Below are positions 2-9,309 of a DNA stretch of 9,313 nucleotides, piece after piece. The stretch's first letter is position 1. Each line of letters opens with the position of its first letter. This DNA comes from J088 sp003695505 [NCBI: Candidatus Dadabacteria bacterium] (GTDB lineage Bacteria; J088), in the NCBI GenBank assembly GCA_003695505.1, contig RFIY01000122.1, forward strand, positions 1 through 9,313, given 5' to 3'. The notes under the pieces are model-generated. The model did not search any database and was not told where the DNA came from. It worked only from the letters and a program-made list of their open reading frames with translations. The position numbers and the translations under genes were made by a program.

Positions 2-898
2 ATTCAGCAGGAAAGCGATCCCCAGGAAGACGATCTGCTTCCTGCGGACGGTTTCTTCTCCGGCCTGGCCTCGGCATTCGCCGCAGGACCAGACCAGGTA
101 CCGCAGCGTCTGCTCGCGCTGATCATCGACAACCGGCTCGACCTCGACGACCTGCAACGCATCGTACGTGATCTTCGTGCCAGTCTCGCTGGCAGCGAGC
201 CCTATGTGCCACACGATGCCGTCTGGGAAATGCTGCGCGATGCGTTGTCGATCCTGCCGGGATACGAAGGTCCACGCGATCCACTCGGCTTTCGTATTCC
301 GGGTCTCGATCTTTCGCGTCTGTTCACCTTTCCGGTTGTTGATCTGACCGATCCGGAAGAAGGGTTTTTCCCCTGGTTCTGTACGACGGACGCGGCCAGC
401 GAGCAGGGATGTGCCAGGCCTGGAGACATCCTGATCGACAGCGAACAGGAACCGTACGAAACCGATTCTGAGGGCAATCGCACGGCATTCGAGGATGCCG
501 GCGTAAACGGCACTCCCCAGTGCAACACCGTTGCCCAGCTCTGCCAGGGTCTCGACCTGCAGGCGCCCGGAGCCGGTAATGGACGTTGGGATGAGCCGAT
601 CGCGTTGCGCGCAACTGATCCGGAAGCGACAGCGGACAATGCTGCATTGCTGCCGCCCCTGGCGCATCCGACTCCGTGGCAGACGACCGACCCTCCGAAC
701 GACATTGTCGATCCGCTCTATATGTACTTTGGCAACCCCGATCTCAATGGGGCGTTCGTGCCGCTGACCGAAACCAGCGCCAATGGCGTGACATCCATCG
801 TCGTGGATCACGACCGATCCTATACGAATCCCGATCTGATGCGCCTGTTGTCCGTAGCGGCCTGGATCGCCGATTCACTGCCGGGGCTGCTCAAATGA
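2..898 (+). CDS. 3' part of an unrecognised, probably exported protein
   Basis: The frame is open from the left edge to a TGA at 896-898, so 298 residues are visible and the true start lies outside the window. I do not recognise the family. The N-terminal visible part is helical and acidic. The middle is rich in Pro, Gly, Asp and Thr and carries four cysteines within about 55 residues (codons between 380 and 544), a spacing that would suit disulfides in an exported protein; this is inference because the signal region is missing. The C-terminus is a hydrophobic or amphipathic helix ending in Leu-Leu-Lys. A GTG at 206 could serve as a start but has no good SD, and the same frame stays coding-like upstream, so I treat the gene as truncated by the window. 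Its stop overlaps the next gene's ATG (ATGA), which suggests co-translation with the SRPBCC protein. Confidence 0.75.
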   Translation: MQQESDPQEDDLLPADGFFSGLASAFAAGPDQVPQRLLALIIDNRLDLDDLQRIVRDLRASLAGSEPYVPHDAVWEMLRDALSILPGYEGPRDPLGFRIPGLDLSRLFTFPVVDLTDPEEGFFPWFCTTDAASEQGCARPGDILIDSEQEPYETDSEGNRTAFEDAGVNGTPQCNTVAQLCQGLDLQAPGAGNGRWDEPIALRATDPEATADNAALLPPLAHPTPWQTTDPPNDIVDPLYMYFGNPDLNGAFVPLTETSANGVTSIVVDHDRSYTNPDLMRLLSVAAWIADSLPGLLK

Positions 899-1377
899 AC
901 AATTCGACGCACCAGCTCCTGGCCACGCAATCACGACGATTTCCGGTCGACGCCGACCGTCTCTGGTTCTGGACGGCGAATCCGGACCGGTATGCACAAT
1001 GGTTTCCCGGCGTCGTCGCGATCGAATCACTGAGCAATGGACCGCTCCGGCCCGGATTCCAGATGCGGGAAACGGTGGCACTCGTACCCGGTTTGCATGC
1101 GCGCGGCAACCTCACCGTCCGCGAGTGCCGCCAACCGCATCGTCTGCAGATCGACGGCACACTGCCGCTCCTGAAACCGACGGTCGCATTCGTGATCGAC
1201 GATGTACCGGGCGGTGCGATCTTGCGATGGTCCATGTATACACGTCAGCACAATCCCGTCGTCGCCCGGCTACTCACCATCCTCGTGCGTCCAATGCTAC
1301 AACGACGCCTGCGGAAGGGCCTGGATCATCTTGGTCAGCTCGTTTCGTCGGAGCAGTCCAGATCAGCGCGGGTATAA
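895..1377 (+). CDS. SRPBCC (START/polyketide cyclase-like) family protein
   Basis: This 160-residue protein has the outline of the SRPBCC helix-grip fold. The opening strand is followed by a Val-Asp-Ala-Asp-x-Leu-Trp helix start and an Asn-Pro-Asp-Arg-Tyr-x-x-Trp-Phe-Pro segment (about residues 19-41), a signature shared by polyketide cyclase/dehydrase and START-like lipid-binding proteins. Alternating strands follow, then a long basic C-terminal helix (about 126-150). Family members bind hydrophobic ligands in a central cavity; the ligand here cannot be read from sequence. The ATG at 895 overlaps the upstream stop by ATGA, so translation is probably coupled. A longer in-frame start exists upstream, but it would run deep into the preceding gene and adds only low-complexity Arg/Ser-rich sequence. 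No signal peptide is visible, so a cytosolic location is likely. A link to the sterol genes 3 kb downstream is conceivable but unsupported. Confidence 0.75.
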   Translation: MNNSTHQLLATQSRRFPVDADRLWFWTANPDRYAQWFPGVVAIESLSNGPLRPGFQMRETVALVPGLHARGNLTVRECRQPHRLQIDGTLPLLKPTVAFVIDDVPGGAILRWSMYTRQHNPVVARLLTILVRPMLQRRLRKGLDHLGQLVSSEQSRSARV

Positions 1378-1447: not shown

Positions 1448-2782
1448 ATGTCCATGACACGTCGGCGCGTACCCGTGTGGAGTGTGCTCACCGTATTTGC
1501 GACCCTTGCCCCGGTTGCCGCACTGGCCGCCGACGACCCTGTCGATCACGGCACGACGGCGTGGATGATGATCTCGACGGCGCTTGTTCTGCTGATGGTG
1601 CCAGGACTGGCCATGTTCTATGGTGGCCTGGTGCGCACCAAAAACGTGTTGTCGACGATGATGCACAGTTTCAGCGCGATGGCCGTCATTGGCGTGCTCT
1701 GGGTCGTTTGCGGTTACAGCCTGACGTTCGGCAGCAGTATCCTTGGCGGCGCCGTCGGATGGAACTGGGACTATTTCTTTCTGAAAGGCATTGATGACGT
1801 CATCGTCGATGGCATTCCCGAATACATTCTTGCGATGTTCCAGGGCAAGTTCGCGATCATCACGCCGGCGCTGATCAGCGGCGCGATCGCCGAGCGCGTC
1901 CTGTTTCGTGGTTATGTCATGTTTATTTCACTCTGGTTCCTGCTCGTCTATGCGCCGCTGTGCCACTGGGTCTGGGCCAGCGACGGCTGGCTGTTCAATG
2001 CTGGCGCGATGGGTGTGATTGACCTCGCTGGTGGCCTGGTCATCCATGTCTCGGCCGGTGTCAGCGCCCTGGTTGCTGCGCTCTACCTCGGCGCCCGACG
2101 CGGCTTCCCAAAAACGCCGATGTTGCCGAACAACCTGGTTATGACCATGACCGGCGCCGGCTTGCTCTGGGTTGGGTGGTACGGTTTCAATGCCGGCTCG
2201 ACGCTCGGCAGCGGTCTCGATACGGCGCGCGCGCTGACGATGACACAGCTTTCAGCCGCAAGTGGCGCGCTGACCTGGCTGGCCATCGAGGCCATCAAGT
2301 TTCGCAAGGCGACGGCCCTCGGGATGGCTTCGGGGATCGTCGCCGGCCTGGTCGTGATCACCCCGGCGGCCGGCGTCGTCCAGCCAGTCGGCGCCCTGAC
2401 GCTTGGCGCGCTCTCGTCACTGATCTGTTTCTACGCATTGCAGTTGAAGTTCCGCTTCGGCTATGACGACAGCCTCGACTGCTTCGGTATTCATGGCGTC
2501 GGCAGCGGATTTGGTGTGCTGGCGCTGCCGTTTTTCCTGCGAGACAGCTGGTTGCAAGAGGCCGCGGCGGCCGCGGGCGGATCGTGGACCGCGCTCGACC
2601 AGTTCGGCATTCAGGTCATGGGGATGGCCGCGACGGTAGCCCTGGCTGCAACCATGACGTTGCTGATTTGTGTCATTGTAAACAAGACCGTCGGCTTCCG
2701 TTGCGACGAAGAAACCGAAGAAATCGGTCTCGATCAGAGCCTGCATGGCGAAGAGGGCTACGGATTCATGACCACGCGCTGA
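1448..2782 (+). CDS. amtB: Ammonium transporter AmtB (Amt/Mep/Rh family)
   Basis: This 444-residue inner-membrane channel carries ammonium into the cell, normally as a homotrimer. A signal peptide (about residues 1-27, ending Ala-Leu-Ala-Ala) precedes about eleven membrane helices. Family landmarks are present. FAIITPALI..GAIAER (about 135-150) follows the candidate outer gate Phe131, and Trp176 lies in the HWVW segment at the periplasmic mouth. Asp192 and His200 sit in IDLAGGLVIH, WYGFNAGS spans 244-251, and His349 is in FGIHGVGSG. His200 and His349 form the twin-histidine pore. The cytoplasmic tail has the usual Glu-rich GLDQSLHGEEGY ending that contacts PII proteins in known members. The ATG at 1448 has GAGGAG eight bases upstream; longer in-frame starts run into the SRPBCC gene and lack an SD. 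AmtB genes often follow glnK, but none is adjacent here. Length and pore residues indicate an intact transporter. Confidence 0.96.
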   Translation: MSMTRRRVPVWSVLTVFATLAPVAALAADDPVDHGTTAWMMISTALVLLMVPGLAMFYGGLVRTKNVLSTMMHSFSAMAVIGVLWVVCGYSLTFGSSILGGAVGWNWDYFFLKGIDDVIVDGIPEYILAMFQGKFAIITPALISGAIAERVLFRGYVMFISLWFLLVYAPLCHWVWASDGWLFNAGAMGVIDLAGGLVIHVSAGVSALVAALYLGARRGFPKTPMLPNNLVMTMTGAGLLWVGWYGFNAGSTLGSGLDTARALTMTQLSAASGALTWLAIEAIKFRKATALGMASGIVAGLVVITPAAGVVQPVGALTLGALSSLICFYALQLKFRFGYDDSLDCFGIHGVGSGFGVLALPFFLRDSWLQEAAAAAGGSWTALDQFGIQVMGMAATVALAATMTLLICVIVNKTVGFRCDEETEEIGLDQSLHGEEGYGFMTTR

Positions 2783-3069: not shown

Positions 3070-3318
3070 GTGACACAATCCATTTATGTAGGCAATCTGC
3101 CCTACTCCGTCAGCGAACCCGAACTTCGTGGCCTGTTCGAACAGTACGGCGAAGTTCAAAGCGTCAACCTGATCATGGATCGCGAAACCGGTCGTCCGCG
3201 TGGCTTCGGTTTCGTGACGATGGAACGTGCCGACGCACTGAACGCGATCGAAGCACTCAACGGCACCGAACTCGGTGGCCGTACGATGCGTGTCAACGAA
3301 GCGCAACCGCGCCGCTGA
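3070..3318 (+). CDS. RRM-domain RNA-binding protein, copy 1
   Basis: This 82-residue protein is a single RNA-recognition motif. RNP2 is IYVGNL (residues 5-10) and RNP1 is RGFGFVTM (44-51), both with the aromatic residues that stack on RNA bases. The segment MDRETGRPRG preceding RNP1 is typical of bacterial and cyanobacterial glycine-poor RRM proteins. The protein ends soon after the last beta strand with a basic PRR tail. It probably binds single-stranded RNA in the cytosol as a chaperone or post-transcriptional regulator; the targets are unknown. The start is GTG, supported by AAGGAG seven bases upstream and by the identical arrangement in copy 2. It is monocistronic, between its own leader and terminator. 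It shares 70 of 82 residues with copy 2; differences cluster at residues 52-61, in the second helix away from the RNA face. Confidence 0.95.
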   Translation: MTQSIYVGNLPYSVSEPELRGLFEQYGEVQSVNLIMDRETGRPRGFGFVTMERADALNAIEALNGTELGGRTMRVNEAQPRR

Positions 3319-3829: not shown

Positions 3830-4078
3830 GTGACACAATCCATCTACGTAGGCAACCTGCCCTACTCCGTCAGCGAACCCGAACTGCGCAATCTGTTCGA
3901 GCAGTATGGCGAAGTCGAAAACGTCAACCTGATCATGGACCGCGACACCGGCCGCCCGCGTGGCTTTGCGTTCGTGACCATGTCTTCGGCAGAAGCGGCC
4001 ACCGCCATCGGCGCCCTCAATGGCACCGACCTGGGTGGACGCACGATGCGCGTCAACGAAGCGCAACCGCGCCGCTAA
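3830..4078 (+). CDS. RRM-domain RNA-binding protein, copy 2
   Basis: This 82-residue paralogue of the protein at 3070 has an unchanged RNP2, IYVGNL (residues 5-10), and an RNP1 of RGFAFVTM (44-51), with Gly47 replaced by Ala. Both conserved RNP1 aromatics remain, so RNA binding should be retained. The twelve substitutions are mostly conservative or in the second helix (52-61). The GTG start has AAAGGAG seven bases upstream, as in copy 1. The gene has its own leader and terminator, so the two copies can be expressed separately and possibly under different conditions. The role is inferred to be RNA chaperoning or post-transcriptional control. Small RRM proteins of this kind in cyanobacteria are known to be cold-induced; that is not shown here. 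Confidence 0.95.
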   Translation: MTQSIYVGNLPYSVSEPELRNLFEQYGEVENVNLIMDRDTGRPRGFAFVTMSSAEAATAIGALNGTDLGGRTMRVNEAQPRR

Positions 4079-4301: not shown

Positions 4302-6671
4302 ATGCCCATGCTGCCGGAACCGGACATCGTTGTGATTGGTGGCGGCCCCATTGGCTGCGCGGCCGCGCTGGCATTCGCGCGCGCCGGACAGCGCGTCTGG
4401 ATTGTCGAACAGGCCCCGGATGCGTGCCATAAACGGTTTGCCGGGGAGTGGCTGCATCCGCGCGGTCTGGACGTCCTGAGCGATCTTACCGGGTGGGACG
4501 CACCGCCATTCGTCCATGCCACCATGCCGGGTTTCATCGTCAAGGCACCGGGGCATGATCCCGTCACGCTACCGTATCTGCACGACGCACACGCCATCGG
4601 CTTCGACCATGGCGCCCTTGTCGAGGCACTGCGCGCACGACTGCACGACTGGAACAACATCCACTACATCGCTTCCGCACGCGCGACCGTCGATGGCTCG
4701 CAGGTACACATCTCGGGAGCCGTCGAAAGGGTCGTAACACCCGATCGCGTGATCGTCGCCGCCGGTCGAGCGGGCGCGCGCATGCTGCAATGTGCGCCGG
4801 CACAGTCGGTGTCGGTCATGGGCGGAATCGTTGTCGACCTGCCGGAACGCGATGTGCCGGAACACGCTCAGGTCATTCTCGGCGGCCCGGGCCCGATCCT
4901 GATCTACCGTATTGGCCTACGACGCGTGCGCATCAGCATTGACCTGCCGGCAGCGTTGCGCTCACTTCGCCGCCAGCCACAGTTGCTCAGCCACCTGCTT
5001 GAGCCATTTCTGCCATCGATGCTGTCGGCTCCCGTCCGCAAGGCCTTGCTGGCGAACGAAGTGACCTGGGCCGCCGCCTCATACCGGCCCCGTTGCCACT
5101 ATGGGACAGAACACGTCTCCGCTGTTGGTGACGCCGCCGGGACGGTTCATCCGTTGACCGCCGGCGGCCTGACGCTGGGCCTGCTCGATGTTGCAACCGT
5201 CGCCTCGCTGCCGTTTCACGACTGGCGCGAGCAGCGACTCCGGGACACGCTGGTACCGGAATGGCTGTCGCTTGCACTCTATGGTGTTTTTGCCGGGCAG
5301 CAGGCGGGCGCACGCCAGTTGCGGGACGGCGTGTTCCAGCACTGGCAACGGTCTCCCCGGATTCGCGAGCAGACGACGGCATTGCTCGCCATCGAAGAAA
5401 CGCGACCGGCCGCGTTCGCCCGGGTATTTACCCGGATCGGACTGGGCACCGCCGCCGTGTCGCTGACCGGCCAGCGGCAACCGCGCAACGCCGGAGCGGT
5501 CCTGCGTACATTGCTGCCCTGGGCACGCTGGCCGGTTGCCGCCGTGTTGCCAGAGCGCCTCGTCACGCAACGGCGTCGACGGTCGACGCCCGTCGCCCCC
5601 CTGAACCTGAACATTCCCCTGAAAGGATCGCAGCCGATGCCATTGACGAACGATCATCGTTACTGTCTGGAATCCCTCCAGGCCGTGTCACGCACGTTCT
5701 CCCAACCAATCCGTATGCTCGACGAGCCGTTGCAGACCGGCGTCGCCTGCGGATATCTGCTCTGCAGAGTCGCGGACACGATCGAGGATCATCCGGGCCT
5801 TGAACCGGCACAGCGGAATCGTCTCTTTCCGCTCTTTCTCGCGGTGCTTTCCCGCGAGATTTCGCCGGAGGTCTTCGCGGCCGCGTTTCCGCTTGATGAT
5901 CCGAACGATCCCGAGGTAGATCTGGCAACGCACCTGCCACGCGTCCTTCGTGTCCTCGATTCGATCCCCGGCGCACAACGAGATGCCGTGCTCTACTGGG
6001 TCGGCGAGATGGCGCGCGGCATGCAGATCTATACGCAGCGCCGCACCGACGATGGCGGTCTGCTCACGCTACTGACCATGCAGGATCTCGAAAGATATTG
6101 TTACTTCGTTGCCGGAACCGTTGGCCACATGCTGACCGAGTTGTTTATTGGCAGCCACCCCCATCTGCCCGAATCCTCGCGCCAACGCCTGACTGAGCTG
6201 GCGGAGTCGTTCGGCATGGGTCTGCAGCTCGTCAACATGATCAAGGATGTCGCCGACGACCTCGAGCGCGGCGTCGTCTATGTTCCTCGCGCCCTCTGCG
6301 CCCGGGCCAGGCTGACACCCGCGCAGTTGCTCGATCCGGCGCTGGGCGCCCGTGCGCAAGAAGCCCTGTCTCCGATGTTCACACTGGCCTGGACGATGCT
6401 GGACGATGCCGTCGAGTACACCTGCCTGCTCCCGACGGAGGCGACCGATCAACGGCTGTTCTGCCTGCTGCCGTTACTGATGGCCGGCGCGACGCTGAGC
6501 CACGCTCAGGATCACCCGGACCTGCTCAAACCCGGCGCGGCGGTGAAAATCTCGCGCGACGTCGTACATCGCATCATCGCCGACGCGCAGCGCTTGGCAA
6601 CGGACAACGATGCCATCCGAGCCCAGTGGCAAACCCTGCGCCACGCGTCCGCGCAGCGTCGCGCATCATGA
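4302..6671 (+). CDS. Squalene monooxygenase fused in frame to squalene synthase
   Basis: One uninterrupted 789-residue frame encodes two enzymes. Residues 1-~425 are a squalene-monooxygenase-type flavoprotein with an FAD-binding GGGPIG (13-18) and the strand-ending Glu36. It has GEWLHPRGLDVL (48-59, matching the eukaryotic GEFLQPGG segment), PGPILIYRI (196-204) and GDAAGTVHPLTAGGLT (276-291), the counterpart of the eukaryotic GDAxNMRHPLTGGGMT. Residues 446-789 are a squalene synthase, described separately. The first domain would make 2,3-oxidosqualene using O2 and reduced flavin; the second supplies squalene. Hydrophobic segments near 398-420 followed by RRRR may form a membrane-contacting tail at the junction. 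The ATG at 4302 has GAGG seven bases upstream; an in-frame TTG at 4269 lies inside the palindrome and is unlikely. The linker (431-445) looks like a former intergenic spacer: it contains an SD, and a C6 run lies at its start. The fusion may therefore be real or a one-base frameshift artefact. Confidence 0.85.
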   Translation: MPMLPEPDIVVIGGGPIGCAAALAFARAGQRVWIVEQAPDACHKRFAGEWLHPRGLDVLSDLTGWDAPPFVHATMPGFIVKAPGHDPVTLPYLHDAHAIGFDHGALVEALRARLHDWNNIHYIASARATVDGSQVHISGAVERVVTPDRVIVAAGRAGARMLQCAPAQSVSVMGGIVVDLPERDVPEHAQVILGGPGPILIYRIGLRRVRISIDLPAALRSLRRQPQLLSHLLEPFLPSMLSAPVRKALLANEVTWAAASYRPRCHYGTEHVSAVGDAAGTVHPLTAGGLTLGLLDVATVASLPFHDWREQRLRDTLVPEWLSLALYGVFAGQQAGARQLRDGVFQHWQRSPRIREQTTALLAIEETRPAAFARVFTRIGLGTAAVSLTGQRQPRNAGAVLRTLLPWARWPVAAVLPERLVTQRRRRSTPVAPLNLNIPLKGSQPMPLTNDHRYCLESLQAVSRTFSQPIRMLDEPLQTGVACGYLLCRVADTIEDHPGLEPAQRNRLFPLFLAVLSREISPEVFAAAFPLDDPNDPEVDLATHLPRVLRVLDSIPGAQRDAVLYWVGEMARGMQIYTQRRTDDGGLLTLLTMQDLERYCYFVAGTVGHMLTELFIGSHPHLPESSRQRLTELAESFGMGLQLVNMIKDVADDLERGVVYVPRALCARARLTPAQLLDPALGARAQEALSPMFTLAWTMLDDAVEYTCLLPTEATDQRLFCLLPLLMAGATLSHAQDHPDLLKPGAAVKISRDVVHRIIADAQRLATDNDAIRAQWQTLRHASAQRRAS
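5596..5601 (+). other. C6 run at the monooxygenase/synthase junction
   Basis: Six consecutive C lie just before the linker. With one C fewer, the monooxygenase would end at TGA 5602-5604, and two more TGA codons (5608, 5620) stand in that same frame. The synthase would then be a separate cistron with its own SD about 33 bases later. The run therefore decides between a fusion and two genes and is a possible site of sequencing error or slippage. Confidence 0.7.
5622..5639 (+). promoter_or_regulatory. Internal ribosome-binding site and start for squalene synthase
   Basis: AAAGGA (5622-5627) lies nine bases before the in-frame ATG at 5637-5639, exactly where the squalene synthase domain begins. 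It should allow separate translation of the synthase even if the longer frame is also read through. Confidence 0.65.
5637..6671 (+). CDS. sqs: Squalene synthase, second domain or independently started product
   Basis: Counted from the internal ATG, this 344-residue trans-isoprenyl diphosphate synthase joins two farnesyl diphosphates head to head to give squalene, using NADPH. Motifs in order are VSRTF (17-21), the first Asp-rich site DTIED (47-51), YCYFVAGTVG (154-163), and the second Asp-rich site KDVADD (203-208). The two Asp sites bind Mg-diphosphate. YC..VAG and the DTIED form resemble eukaryotic squalene synthase (YCHYVAG, DTLED) more than the HpnC/HpnD pair used in many bacterial hopanoid pathways. 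Phytoene synthase is the main alternative; the NADPH-type motif and the neighbouring oxidosqualene cyclase argue for squalene. No long C-terminal membrane helix is present, although a hydrophobic stretch lies near 276-285. The stop overlaps the cyclase ATG by ATGA, so translation of the two is coupled. It is in frame with the upstream monooxygenase without an intervening stop. Confidence 0.88.
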   Translation: MPLTNDHRYCLESLQAVSRTFSQPIRMLDEPLQTGVACGYLLCRVADTIEDHPGLEPAQRNRLFPLFLAVLSREISPEVFAAAFPLDDPNDPEVDLATHLPRVLRVLDSIPGAQRDAVLYWVGEMARGMQIYTQRRTDDGGLLTLLTMQDLERYCYFVAGTVGHMLTELFIGSHPHLPESSRQRLTELAESFGMGLQLVNMIKDVADDLERGVVYVPRALCARARLTPAQLLDPALGARAQEALSPMFTLAWTMLDDAVEYTCLLPTEATDQRLFCLLPLLMAGATLSHAQDHPDLLKPGAAVKISRDVVHRIIADAQRLATDNDAIRAQWQTLRHASAQRRAS

Positions 6672-8665
6672 ATCGCCCGGCCGAACAACTTTCCGCCACG
6701 ACCCGCGTTACGCCCGCCATCGCTGGCGCGGCGCACGCGCTCGCGCGAAGTCAGGCGCCGGACGGTTCGTGGCGGGCGCCGTACACCGGTCCGCTGTTTT
6801 TGCTGCCCGCCTGGGTCATTGCATTGCGGGTCTGCAGCCGGCTACCCGAACACACCGTCGCCGAAAAAATGTGCCGCCGGCTCGAACAGACGCAACGCCA
6901 GGATGGTAGCTGGGGCATTTCCATCGACGCCCCCGGCGCGGTCTACACAACAGTCCTCGCCTATGTGGCGCAGCGGCTGCTTGGCAAACCCGCGGAAGAA
7001 ACCGACCTCCGACGCGCCCGCAACTGGTTTCTGGTTCACGGCGGCGCACTCGGCGCCGCGCCGTGGGGAAAATATCTGTTGGCGACCTTGTCGTTGTACG
7101 ACTGGGACGGCGTGCTGCCGGTGCCACCCGAGTCATGGCTGCTGCCGCGTCGATTCCCCGCCCACCCTGCCAATTTCTGGTGCCACACGCGCATGGTCTA
7201 TCTGCCGCTGTCGTGGCTGTATGGACGGCGAGCCGCGTTGATGCCCGATCGCAACCTGCGCGCGCTTCGGGAAGAGCTCTACGACGCACCATGGGATGCA
7301 ATCCACTGGCCCAGCCATCGCACGCGAATCGCCGAAACCGATGCCGCCGAACCGCTGGCGGATGTCTGGCGTCCCGCGTCGCAGGCCCTTGCCCTCTGGA
7401 ACCGCTTCGGCTCCAGACGTCTTCGTGATCGCGCGCTCAAAGAAGTGTTACAGCAAATTCGCTTCGAAGACGAGAACACGCAGGGGCTCTGTCTGGGACC
7501 GGTCAACGCCGTGCTGCATACGATCGTCTGGCAGTTCGCCGATCCAGGGGGACTGCGGGTCGCCCGCCACCTGCAGACGCTCGAACGGGAGTACCGTTGT
7601 GACATCGATGATGCCATTGATCTGCAGGGATACCACAACAGTGCGTTGTGGGATACCGCCTTCAGCGGTCAGGCGCTCAGTGTCGCAGCCCGCACAGGAG
7701 CCCTCGAGGATACGGACGAATTGCAACGCACGCTACGACGCGCCCGACAGTTCGTGGATCGTCAGCAGATACGCACGAATCCCACACACCTGCATCGCGC
7801 CTTTCGGGATCGCACTGATGGCGCCTGGCCGTTTTCCGATGCGCGCCAGGGCTGGCCGACCGCCGACTGCACCGCTGAAGGTCTCGGCGCCTGGCTGTCG
7901 TTGTGCGCGGCGACGGACGAGCGTCCCGATCGACGCCGCGTGCGCATGGCGATCAACTATCTGCTGCGCATGCAAAACCCGGACGGTGGCTGGCCAACCT
8001 ATGAGCGGCAACGTGGCTCCGACGCGCTCGAGAAACTGAACCCGTCCGGTGTCTTTCGCAACATCATGGTCGACTACAGTTGGCCAGAGTGTACGGCCTC
8101 CGTACTCGAAGGCCTGATGCACGCGCTGCCGCACGCAACGGCCGGGCAGCGTCGGCGTATCGACCGCGCCATCGTGCGCGGCAAAGCCTATTTGCTGGAC
8201 ACGCAACGCCCGGACGGATCCTGGTACGGCGGCTGGGGCATCTGCTTCACCTACGGCACGATGTTCGGTATCGCCGGTCTGCGCGCCGCCGGCCTGCCGC
8301 CCGACGATCCACAGATTCGACGTGGCGCCGAGTTTTTGCTGGCGCACCAGAACCCGGACGGCGGCTGGGGCGAAACGCTGCATCACTGCATCGAGCAGCG
8401 CTGGGTCGGCAGCACGCCTAGTACCGTGGTTCAGACCGCCTGGGGTCTGCTGGGGCTGATCCATGGGGGTCTGGCAAGATGCGAGGGGGCGGCCAGGGCA
8501 GCCGCATGGCTGATGCGCAACCAGCAACCCGACGGGAGCTGGCCACACGACGCGGTCACCGGCGTCTTCAATCAGACCTGCGCCATCGACTATCCCCTTT
8601 ATGCACAACATTTCCCCCTGCGCGCGCTTGCGCTCTGGCACCTCCACAAGGGAGAAACGCAATGA
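6668..8665 (+). CDS. osc: Oxidosqualene cyclase (sterol cyclase)
   Basis: This 665-residue triterpene cyclase turns 2,3-oxidosqualene into a tetracyclic sterol skeleton, probably at the membrane surface. The acid motif is DCTAE (400-404), with Asp400 as proton donor and Cys401 and Cys485 (PECTASVL) as its expected partners. Squalene-hopene cyclases instead carry DxDD. Further cyclase signatures are WGKYLLATLSLYDW (133-146), WCHTRMVYLP with His173 (171-180), LQGYHNSALWDTAF (319-332), and WYGGWGICFTYGTMF (519-533). Six QW repeats (near 29, 78, 436, 513, 561 and 619) brace the alpha-barrel domains. By alignment to plant cycloartenol synthase, Tyr410, His477 and Ile481 correspond to Tyr322, Gln394 and Thr398 here. 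That favours lanosterol or parkeol over cycloartenol, as inference. The ATG overlaps the synthase stop and has no SD of its own, so expression depends on coupling. The 42-bp longer GTG start at 6626 lies inside the synthase. Confidence 0.95.
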   Translation: MNRPAEQLSATTRVTPAIAGAAHALARSQAPDGSWRAPYTGPLFLLPAWVIALRVCSRLPEHTVAEKMCRRLEQTQRQDGSWGISIDAPGAVYTTVLAYVAQRLLGKPAEETDLRRARNWFLVHGGALGAAPWGKYLLATLSLYDWDGVLPVPPESWLLPRRFPAHPANFWCHTRMVYLPLSWLYGRRAALMPDRNLRALREELYDAPWDAIHWPSHRTRIAETDAAEPLADVWRPASQALALWNRFGSRRLRDRALKEVLQQIRFEDENTQGLCLGPVNAVLHTIVWQFADPGGLRVARHLQTLEREYRCDIDDAIDLQGYHNSALWDTAFSGQALSVAARTGALEDTDELQRTLRRARQFVDRQQIRTNPTHLHRAFRDRTDGAWPFSDARQGWPTADCTAEGLGAWLSLCAATDERPDRRRVRMAINYLLRMQNPDGGWPTYERQRGSDALEKLNPSGVFRNIMVDYSWPECTASVLEGLMHALPHATAGQRRRIDRAIVRGKAYLLDTQRPDGSWYGGWGICFTYGTMFGIAGLRAAGLPPDDPQIRRGAEFLLAHQNPDGGWGETLHHCIEQRWVGSTPSTVVQTAWGLLGLIHGGLARCEGAARAAAWLMRNQQPDGSWPHDAVTGVFNQTCAIDYPLYAQHFPLRALALWHLHKGETQ

Positions 8666-9309
8666 GCTTGCGACACGTCATTCTTGGCTTGCTGGACCGG
8701 GATCCGATGAGCGGCTACGACATCAAGAAACGCCTGCGCGAGGATCTTCCAGGCTTCTGGAATGTCTCCGATGGACAGCTCTATCCCATGTTGCGACGAC
8801 TGGAACAGGACGGCGCGATTCAGCCGTATACCGATCACCTGCGGGATGAGGATCGGCACGCCTGGACCATCACCGAAGCCGGGCGGGAAGAGCTGCACGC
8901 CTGGTTGCTGGAACCTGTGCGCCGTATCGGCGATTTTAAGGATCCGTTTCTGATGCGACTCGCCTTCTTCGATCGTCTGCCGCGCAGTGTTGTCGAACAG
9001 CGACTCCGGTCGCAGATGCGACAGGGCGCCGACTTCCAGGACAGGATCGAGGACGCTCGCTCTACATACCAGCCCGGCGTCACGAGCTTCCAACGCACGC
9101 TGCTCGACTACGCGCTGCTTGGTGCAGAAATCCGCGCGTGCTTCCTTGATGTACTCGCGATTCGCGCGAGTCAGGGAACCCTGTCACGCACCGAGCCCTT
9201 GCTTGATGAAGAACAGCTCCTGGTCCTGCGTCGGGCACTGGACGAGATCCGCGACCTCGCTCGCGAGGCGCATACACCGCGCGTCCTGGCACGAACAGCC
9301 GCAGCCTGA
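8662..9309 (+). CDS. PadR-family transcriptional regulator
   Basis: This 215-residue protein opens with a PadR winged helix-turn-helix: ILGLLDRDPMSGYDIKKRL (about 7-25), the recognition region VSDGQLYPMLRRLEQDG (35-51), and the wing ending HAWTITEAGREEL (66-78). The part from about 90 to 175 matches the PadR C-terminal helical (Vir_act_alpha_C-like) domain, including FKDPFLMRLAFF, which mediates dimerisation and in some members binds ligand. A charged tail follows. PadR proteins are usually repressors released by a small molecule; the inducer here is unknown but could be a sterol, an intermediate or an unrelated lipid. The ATG overlaps the cyclase stop by ATGA and has GGGAGA seven bases upstream. 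A longer in-frame start near 8479 would lie within the cyclase gene and adds unrelated sequence. Its position as last gene of the operon suggests feedback control, perhaps through the palindrome at 4258. Confidence 0.93.
   Translation: MSLRHVILGLLDRDPMSGYDIKKRLREDLPGFWNVSDGQLYPMLRRLEQDGAIQPYTDHLRDEDRHAWTITEAGREELHAWLLEPVRRIGDFKDPFLMRLAFFDRLPRSVVEQRLRSQMRQGADFQDRIEDARSTYQPGVTSFQRTLLDYALLGAEIRACFLDVLAIRASQGTLSRTEPLLDEEQLLVLRRALDEIRDLAREAHTPRVLARTAAA

What the first reader, a model, noticed from the sequence alone, without database searches (positions are those of the whole stretch)
4302..6671. In-frame fusion of squalene monooxygenase to squalene synthase
There is no stop between the two domains, giving a 789-residue protein with the substrate-making enzyme joined to the substrate-consuming one. 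Channelling of insoluble squalene within one polypeptide would be attractive. I know of no described natural fusion of this pair, though I cannot search for one.
Basis: partly seen in the sequence, partly recalled or inferred. Interest (0 to 1): 0.8.

Follow-up and report, generated by a model that had tools for sequence, protein, structure and literature searches.

The report
Two sterol genes read as one
In this uncultured bacterium two neighbouring genes that make and then oxidise squalene read through as one long gene, but the join hangs on a single base and the nearest relatives found keep the genes apart, so it is a very young fusion or a one-base error, while other bacteria do carry real, older fusions of the same two enzymes.

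Summary
The open frame is there: 4302-6671, 789 codons without a stop, a squalene monooxygenase (SMO) then a squalene synthase (SQS). Its reading as an established channelling enzyme is only partly supported.

Against an old fusion: the SQS has its own ATG (5637) with an AAAGGA ribosome site; such strong sites precede 9 of 38 downstream starts but 4 of 327 internal ATGs in this genome. The next frame has TGA at 5602, 5608 and 5620, where the closest stand-alone SMOs end. The SMO groups with those stand-alone SMOs (98/88). In all 7 fetched loci with SMO directly followed by SQS, the frames are separate.

Against a simple artefact: no convincing frameshift in 20 other readable pieces of the assembly, though this test is blind to joins like this one.

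The window has no X.

Best reading: an smo-sqs-osc-padR operon whose first stop was lost at a C6 run.

The parts
4302..5601 (+). squalene monooxygenase (SMO) part, residues 1 to about 434; GGGPIG (13), GDAAGTVHP (276)
   Evidence: Pfam SE 5.6e-21; phmmer to PDB 6c6n squalene monooxygenase 1.5e-19; motifs
5596..5601 (+). run of six C on which the join depends
5602..5622 (+). TGA codons at 5602, 5608 and 5620 in the next frame (a fourth at 5644), where the closest stand-alone SMOs end
   Evidence: C-termini
5622..5627 (+). AAAGGA, ribosome-binding site for the SQS start
5637..6671 (+). squalene synthase (SQS), 344 aa from its own ATG; DTIED (residue 492 of the long frame) and DVADD (649)
   Evidence: Pfam SQS_PSY 7.4e-45; PDB squalene synthases from 3.3e-18; motifs
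6668..8665 (+). oxidosqualene cyclase (OSC), 665 aa, DCTAE motif at residue 400; ATG overlaps the SQS stop
   Evidence: TIGR01787 536 bits over its cut-off 322.7; TIGR03463 633 bits under its cut-off 851; DCTAE
8662..9309 (+). PadR-family regulator, ATG overlaps the OSC stop
   Evidence: Pfam PadR 2.1e-18; overlap

Best explanation
This is a tightly packed sterol operon, smo-sqs-osc-padR. SQS joins two farnesyl diphosphates to squalene, SMO makes 2,3-oxidosqualene and OSC cyclises it (activities inferred from family and motifs). SQS is still started from its own ATG and ribosome site. The SMO stop, which in the closest relatives sits at this spot, has been lost by one base at a C6 run, so the two frames run together. 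I think a private, recent change in this organism or strain is somewhat likelier than a consensus error (about 60:40). If real, the cell makes SQS alone plus some 789-residue SMO-SQS joined by a short proline-containing stretch. Shown: open frame, families, start site, next-frame stops, relatives' architecture. Inferred: recency, dual products, catalysis.
For: SQS ATG with AAAGGA: five-base ribosome sites precede 9 of 38 ATG starts of downstream genes against 4 of 327 internal in-frame ATGs in this genome. Next frame has TGA at 5602, 5608, 5620; background there is 9 stops in 432 codons over the SMO. The three stand-alone SMOs that group with the window (98/88 with L210 and L212, then 91/85 with L068) end 1 to 5 residues past the matching TP/AP position: STIHAPF*, STIDTPFALSA*, SSIETPMKIR*; window STPVAPL.... 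In 7 of 7 fetched loci with SMO directly followed by SQS the frames differ, by overlap or an 8-base gap. L142 has the same SMO-SQS-OSC order as three frames.
Against: Nothing convincing points to indel errors in this assembly: of 63 same-strand frame changes in 23 pieces (two of them wholly masked), 58 are ordinary overlaps, 4 plain gaps of 85-92 bases, and the last lies over ribosomal-protein-like genes on the other strand. 14 of 15 C/G runs of six or more lie in intact frames, the window's own counted among them. SMO-SQS fusion has happened in this wider group (21 loci), so an older fusion is not far-fetched. The 7 adjacent loci come from about three lineages, five of them one genus. The window SMO is a long branch (1.73), and its SQS is unresolved in the larger tree.
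Confidence: 0.7

Rival explanations
1. An established, maintained bifunctional SMO-SQS enzyme that channels squalene from the synthase to the monooxygenase.
For: Uninterrupted frame. SMO-SQS fusions with an extra domain recur in 21 genomes, some on single-contig assemblies (G170, G757). The genome has one match to this protein. No convincing frameshift elsewhere.
Against: Own ribosome site and ATG for SQS; next-frame TGAs at the place where stand-alone SMOs end; closest SMOs are stand-alone; no direct join among the fetched relatives.
Confidence: 0.2
2. A one-base error in the consensus at the C run: the organism has two ordinary separate genes. This is one branch of the best explanation, named apart (it overlaps it and is not added to it).
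For: The join rests on one base in a run of six C, with a stop in the expected place in the next frame; relatives separate.
Against: No convincing frameshift in 20 other readable pieces of the assembly; other long C/G runs in coding sequence lie in intact frames, one at a contig end excepted. The test is blind to an indel that joins two genes in one frame, as here.
Confidence: 0.28
3. A shrunken member of the SMO-X-SQS family that has lost its middle domain X.
For: Same order of parts, followed by OSC as in L060-L062.
Against: SMO tree puts the window with stand-alone SMOs, not with any of the 21 fused ones; no remnant of X between residues 434 and 446; own ribosome site for SQS.
Confidence: 0.04

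Closest known systems
   Same: Same two enzymes in the same order in one frame; in L060-L062 and L154 followed by a separate OSC.
   Different: Middle domain X of 223-378 aa, in most cases alignable to the C-terminal half of OSC but without DCTAE; the window has about 10 residues there and keeps a ribosome site.
SMO-OSC fusions ('fused SMO/OSC homologs' in the methods of PMC10070321, passage seen)
   Same: Sterol-pathway neighbours fused, SMO at the N-terminus; 12 such loci met here: L063, L078, L079, L143, L151, L152, L156, L163, L170, L222-L224.
   Different: Partner is OSC, not SQS.
Separate SMO and SQS genes side by side (L102, L137-L142)
   Same: SMO directly followed by SQS, then OSC further on or at once (L142 exactly smo-sqs-osc).
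   Different: Separate frames in 7 of 7.
Stand-alone SMO of L210, L212 and L068
   Same: Closest SMOs by tree, near-identical C-terminal motif PWARWP...ST..(T/A)P.
   Different: Stop just after that motif; in L210 and L212 OSC follows, and SQS lies on another contig of the same genome.

Membership tests
squalene monooxygenase (PF08491) | SE domain over Pfam cut-off | tested here: met
   75.3 bits against 20.1
squalene monooxygenase (PF08491) | FAD motifs GxGxxG and GD...HP (motif names recalled) | tested here: met
   GGGPIG and GDAAGTVHP
squalene monooxygenase (PF08491) | epoxidation of squalene | not testable with these tools
   none
squalene synthase | SQS_PSY domain (PF00494) over cut-off and two Asp-rich motifs (recalled) | tested here: met
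   154.1 bits against 26; DTIED and DVADD
squalene synthase | NCBIfam equivalog TIGR01559 over its curated cut-off | tested here: not met
   113.5 bits against 286.75, yet the best of the SQS/phytoene-synthase models by E-value; so filed as SQS-like by domain, motifs and PDB matches, not as a TIGR01559 equivalog
SMO-X-SQS fusion proteins (defined here) | SMO and SQS in one frame | tested here: met
SMO-X-SQS fusion proteins (defined here) | middle domain X of 223-378 aa | tested here: not met
   about 10 residues between residue 434 and the SQS Met 446
SMO-X-SQS fusion proteins (defined here) | SMO groups with the fused SMOs in a tree | tested here: not met
   groups with stand-alone SMOs L210 and L212, 98/88
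oxidosqualene cyclase (neighbour gene) | squalene/oxidosqualene cyclase model over cut-off and DCTAE | tested here: met
   TIGR01787 536.2 against 322.7; DCTAE. TIGR03463 itself 632.7 against 851, not reached

The most novel reading that the evidence does not exclude
The organism really makes one direct SMO-SQS polypeptide, with a short linker and no cyclase-like spacer, as an independent and very young repeat of a fusion that other bacteria reached with a decayed cyclase between the two enzymes: the same pair joined by two routes, which would make squalene channelling between them testable.
Probability: 0.35. Interest if true: 0.55.

Novelty: new variant of a known kind. Interest (0 to 1): 0.42.

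Why it matters
Squalene is insoluble, so a cell that joins its maker to its first consumer would be a natural test of channelling. The window itself is a weak witness. The stronger lead is what it led to: SMO and SQS held in one chain by a cyclase-like spacer without the catalytic motif, in 21 genomes, besides SMO-OSC and HMGR-FPPS-SQS-dehydrogenase fusions. Bacterial sterol synthesis seems to be wired into multi-enzyme proteins again and again, and I found no account of the SMO-SQS kind in the listings and passages seen.

Tried and rejected
Placing the genome: no 16S found in the draft, though the same search rang in only 9 of 14 control genomes; its phylum in the held set contains only itself; RpoB is 55-56% identical to E. 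coli and at best 64% to another genome that is alone in its held phylum. So no close relative was available. Plasmid records gave no place that covers 80% of the protein.

Considered and rejected: shared descent of the join with the SMO-X-SQS proteins (SMO tree). The first SQS tree put the window with two stand-alone SQSs (92/79); the second, with more rows, left it unresolved within a 43-row group, so the SQS tree is not used as evidence. The first SMO tree was also unresolved; I had added L208, L210, L212 and L222-L224 and dropped L072, L107, L064, L105 and one L156 row; I dropped 11 divergent SQS rows.

Limits: the frameshift check finds only frame changes between coding stretches of 150 bases or more and cannot see an indel that puts two genes in one frame; two of its 23 pieces were wholly masked (N) and their 5,502 bases may be counted in its coding total of 131,309. 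In one search one regular expression (GD motif) was one residue short and was repeated. The 21 fused loci are those I fetched; search lists were cut by E-value and by candidate number, so they are a lower bound and not a frequency.

Full report
What is there. One open frame runs from ATG 4302 to TGA 6671, 789 codons. Its first part is a squalene monooxygenase (Pfam SE 5.6e-21; closest PDB chain 6c6n, squalene monooxygenase, 1.5e-19) and its second a squalene synthase (SQS_PSY 7.4e-45; PDB squalene synthases from 3.3e-18). It lies in a packed run of genes: OSC starts inside the SQS stop at 6668 and PadR inside the OSC stop at 8662. The OSC has DCTAE. The draft genome has one match to this protein at E <= 0.001.

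The junction. Residues 434-446 carry the join. Six C stand at 5596-5601, and in the next frame TGA stands at 5602, 5608, 5620 and 5644; over the SMO that frame has 9 stops in 432 codons. The SQS ATG at 5637 is preceded by AAAGGA. In pieces of this genome, a five-base ribosome site lies at -16 to -5 of 9 of 38 ATG starts of downstream genes, and of 4 of 327 in-frame internal ATGs (four-base sites: 16 of 38 and 18 of 327). An earlier, smaller count gave 3 of 157 internal ATG or GTG codons.

Relatives without a middle domain. I fetched 7 loci in which SMO is directly followed by SQS (L102, L137-L142). In all 7 the two are in different frames; five overlap by 11 bases over an ATG...TGA, one overlaps at its listed start, one has an 8-base gap. 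Five of the seven are one genus, so this is about three lineages. L142 has the window's order SMO-SQS-OSC in three frames. The SMOs nearest to the window in the tree, L210 and L212 (98/88) and then L068 (91/85), are stand-alone and end within five residues of the window's STPVAP. In L210 and L212 the next gene is OSC, and SQS is on another contig of the same genome.

Relatives with a middle domain. A broad search led to one order in which many genomes have SMO and SQS in a single frame. Fetched and checked, 18 genomes of that order and 3 of another phylum-level group carry SMO-X-SQS, some on single-contig assemblies (G170, G757). 48 of 183 genomes in that order had any match at E <= 1e-40; in the other group 49 of 195 at 1e-42. 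X is 223-378 aa. Each of the 21 X pieces matches at least one other by blastp at E <= 1e-3. 17 of 21 match an OSC at E <= 0.001, nearly always its C-terminal half; one more (L163) matches weakly and elsewhere; L164, L166 and L168 gave no OSC match. The X of L060 passes the Pfam cut-off for the C-terminal cyclase domain (35.9 against 26.1 bits). 25 of 27 OSC rows have DCTAE; 0 of 21 X have it or a looser form. All 21 fused proteins keep the FAD and GD motifs and both Asp-rich motifs as I wrote them. I infer that X is a worn-down cyclase half. Other fusions met: SMO-OSC in 12 loci, HMGR-FPPS-SQS-dehydrogenase in L063 and FPPS-SQS in L066, SQS joined to a squalene-hopene-type cyclase domain in L169 and to a 3beta-HSD-like domain in L170.

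Error or real. 23 pieces (143,014 bases, 5,502 masked) gave 63 same-strand frame changes: 58 normal overlaps, 4 plain gaps of 85-92 bases, and one odd plus-strand call in L172, where the minus strand reads like ribosomal proteins L14 and L24 (recognised from memory). Of 15 C or G runs of six or more, 14 lie in intact frames, the window's own included, and one at a contig end. So indel errors look rare, but the test cannot see an indel that joins two genes in one frame. Weighing this against the start site and the next-frame stops, I put a recent private join somewhat above a consensus error, about 60:40, and an established fusion at about 0.2. These odds are judgement, not a calculation.

Literature. 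In ten searches (listings only, several cut short of the papers found) no listed title or abstract start describes an SMO-SQS fusion. PMC10070321 mentions 'fused SMO/OSC homologs' in its methods (passages). PMC10202945 and the nannosterol paper PMC10152446 mention none in the passages seen, and PMC4919349 has no occurrence of 'fused' or 'fusion'. The PNAS study of bacterial steroid evolution is not held.

Verdict. As a claim of a new channelling enzyme it is unproven: a just-joined or misread gene pair. The firmer and more interesting result is the family of SMO-X-SQS proteins with a cyclase-like spacer.

Noticed in passing
L060:6057-9650, L061, L062, L151-L168: 21 single-frame SMO-X-SQS proteins; X resembles in most cases an OSC C-terminal half without DCTAE.
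   Followed up: partly
L063:13021-17691 (-): A 1556-aa frame with HMG-CoA reductase, polyprenyl synthetase, SQS and 3beta-HSD/epimerase domains; SMO-OSC fusion (7345-10875) on the same contig.
   Followed up: no
L151 and L152: An SMO-OSC fusion lies just upstream of and on the same strand as the SMO-X-SQS gene, which would fit tandem duplication followed by wear of one cyclase.
   Followed up: no
L169:5798-8872 (+): SQS fused to a cyclase with full squalene-hopene cyclase domains and no DCTAE.
   Followed up: no
L078, L079 (MAGs titled Gammaproteobacteria): SMO-OSC fusions of 1149 and 1124 aa.
   Followed up: no
window 3070-3318 and 3830-4078 (+): Two near-identical 82-aa genes in tandem that look like RRM RNA-binding proteins (recognised from memory, no family search).
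   Followed up: no
window 895-1377 (+) and 1448-2782 (+): SRPBCC (polyketide cyclase / lipid transport) gene followed by an ammonium transporter, upstream of the sterol operon.
   Followed up: no
L073 and L074 (G000 contigs C153 and C89): The rpoB region lies on two contigs whose shared stretch differs by a few residues, a sign of mixed strains in the draft genome.
   Followed up: no
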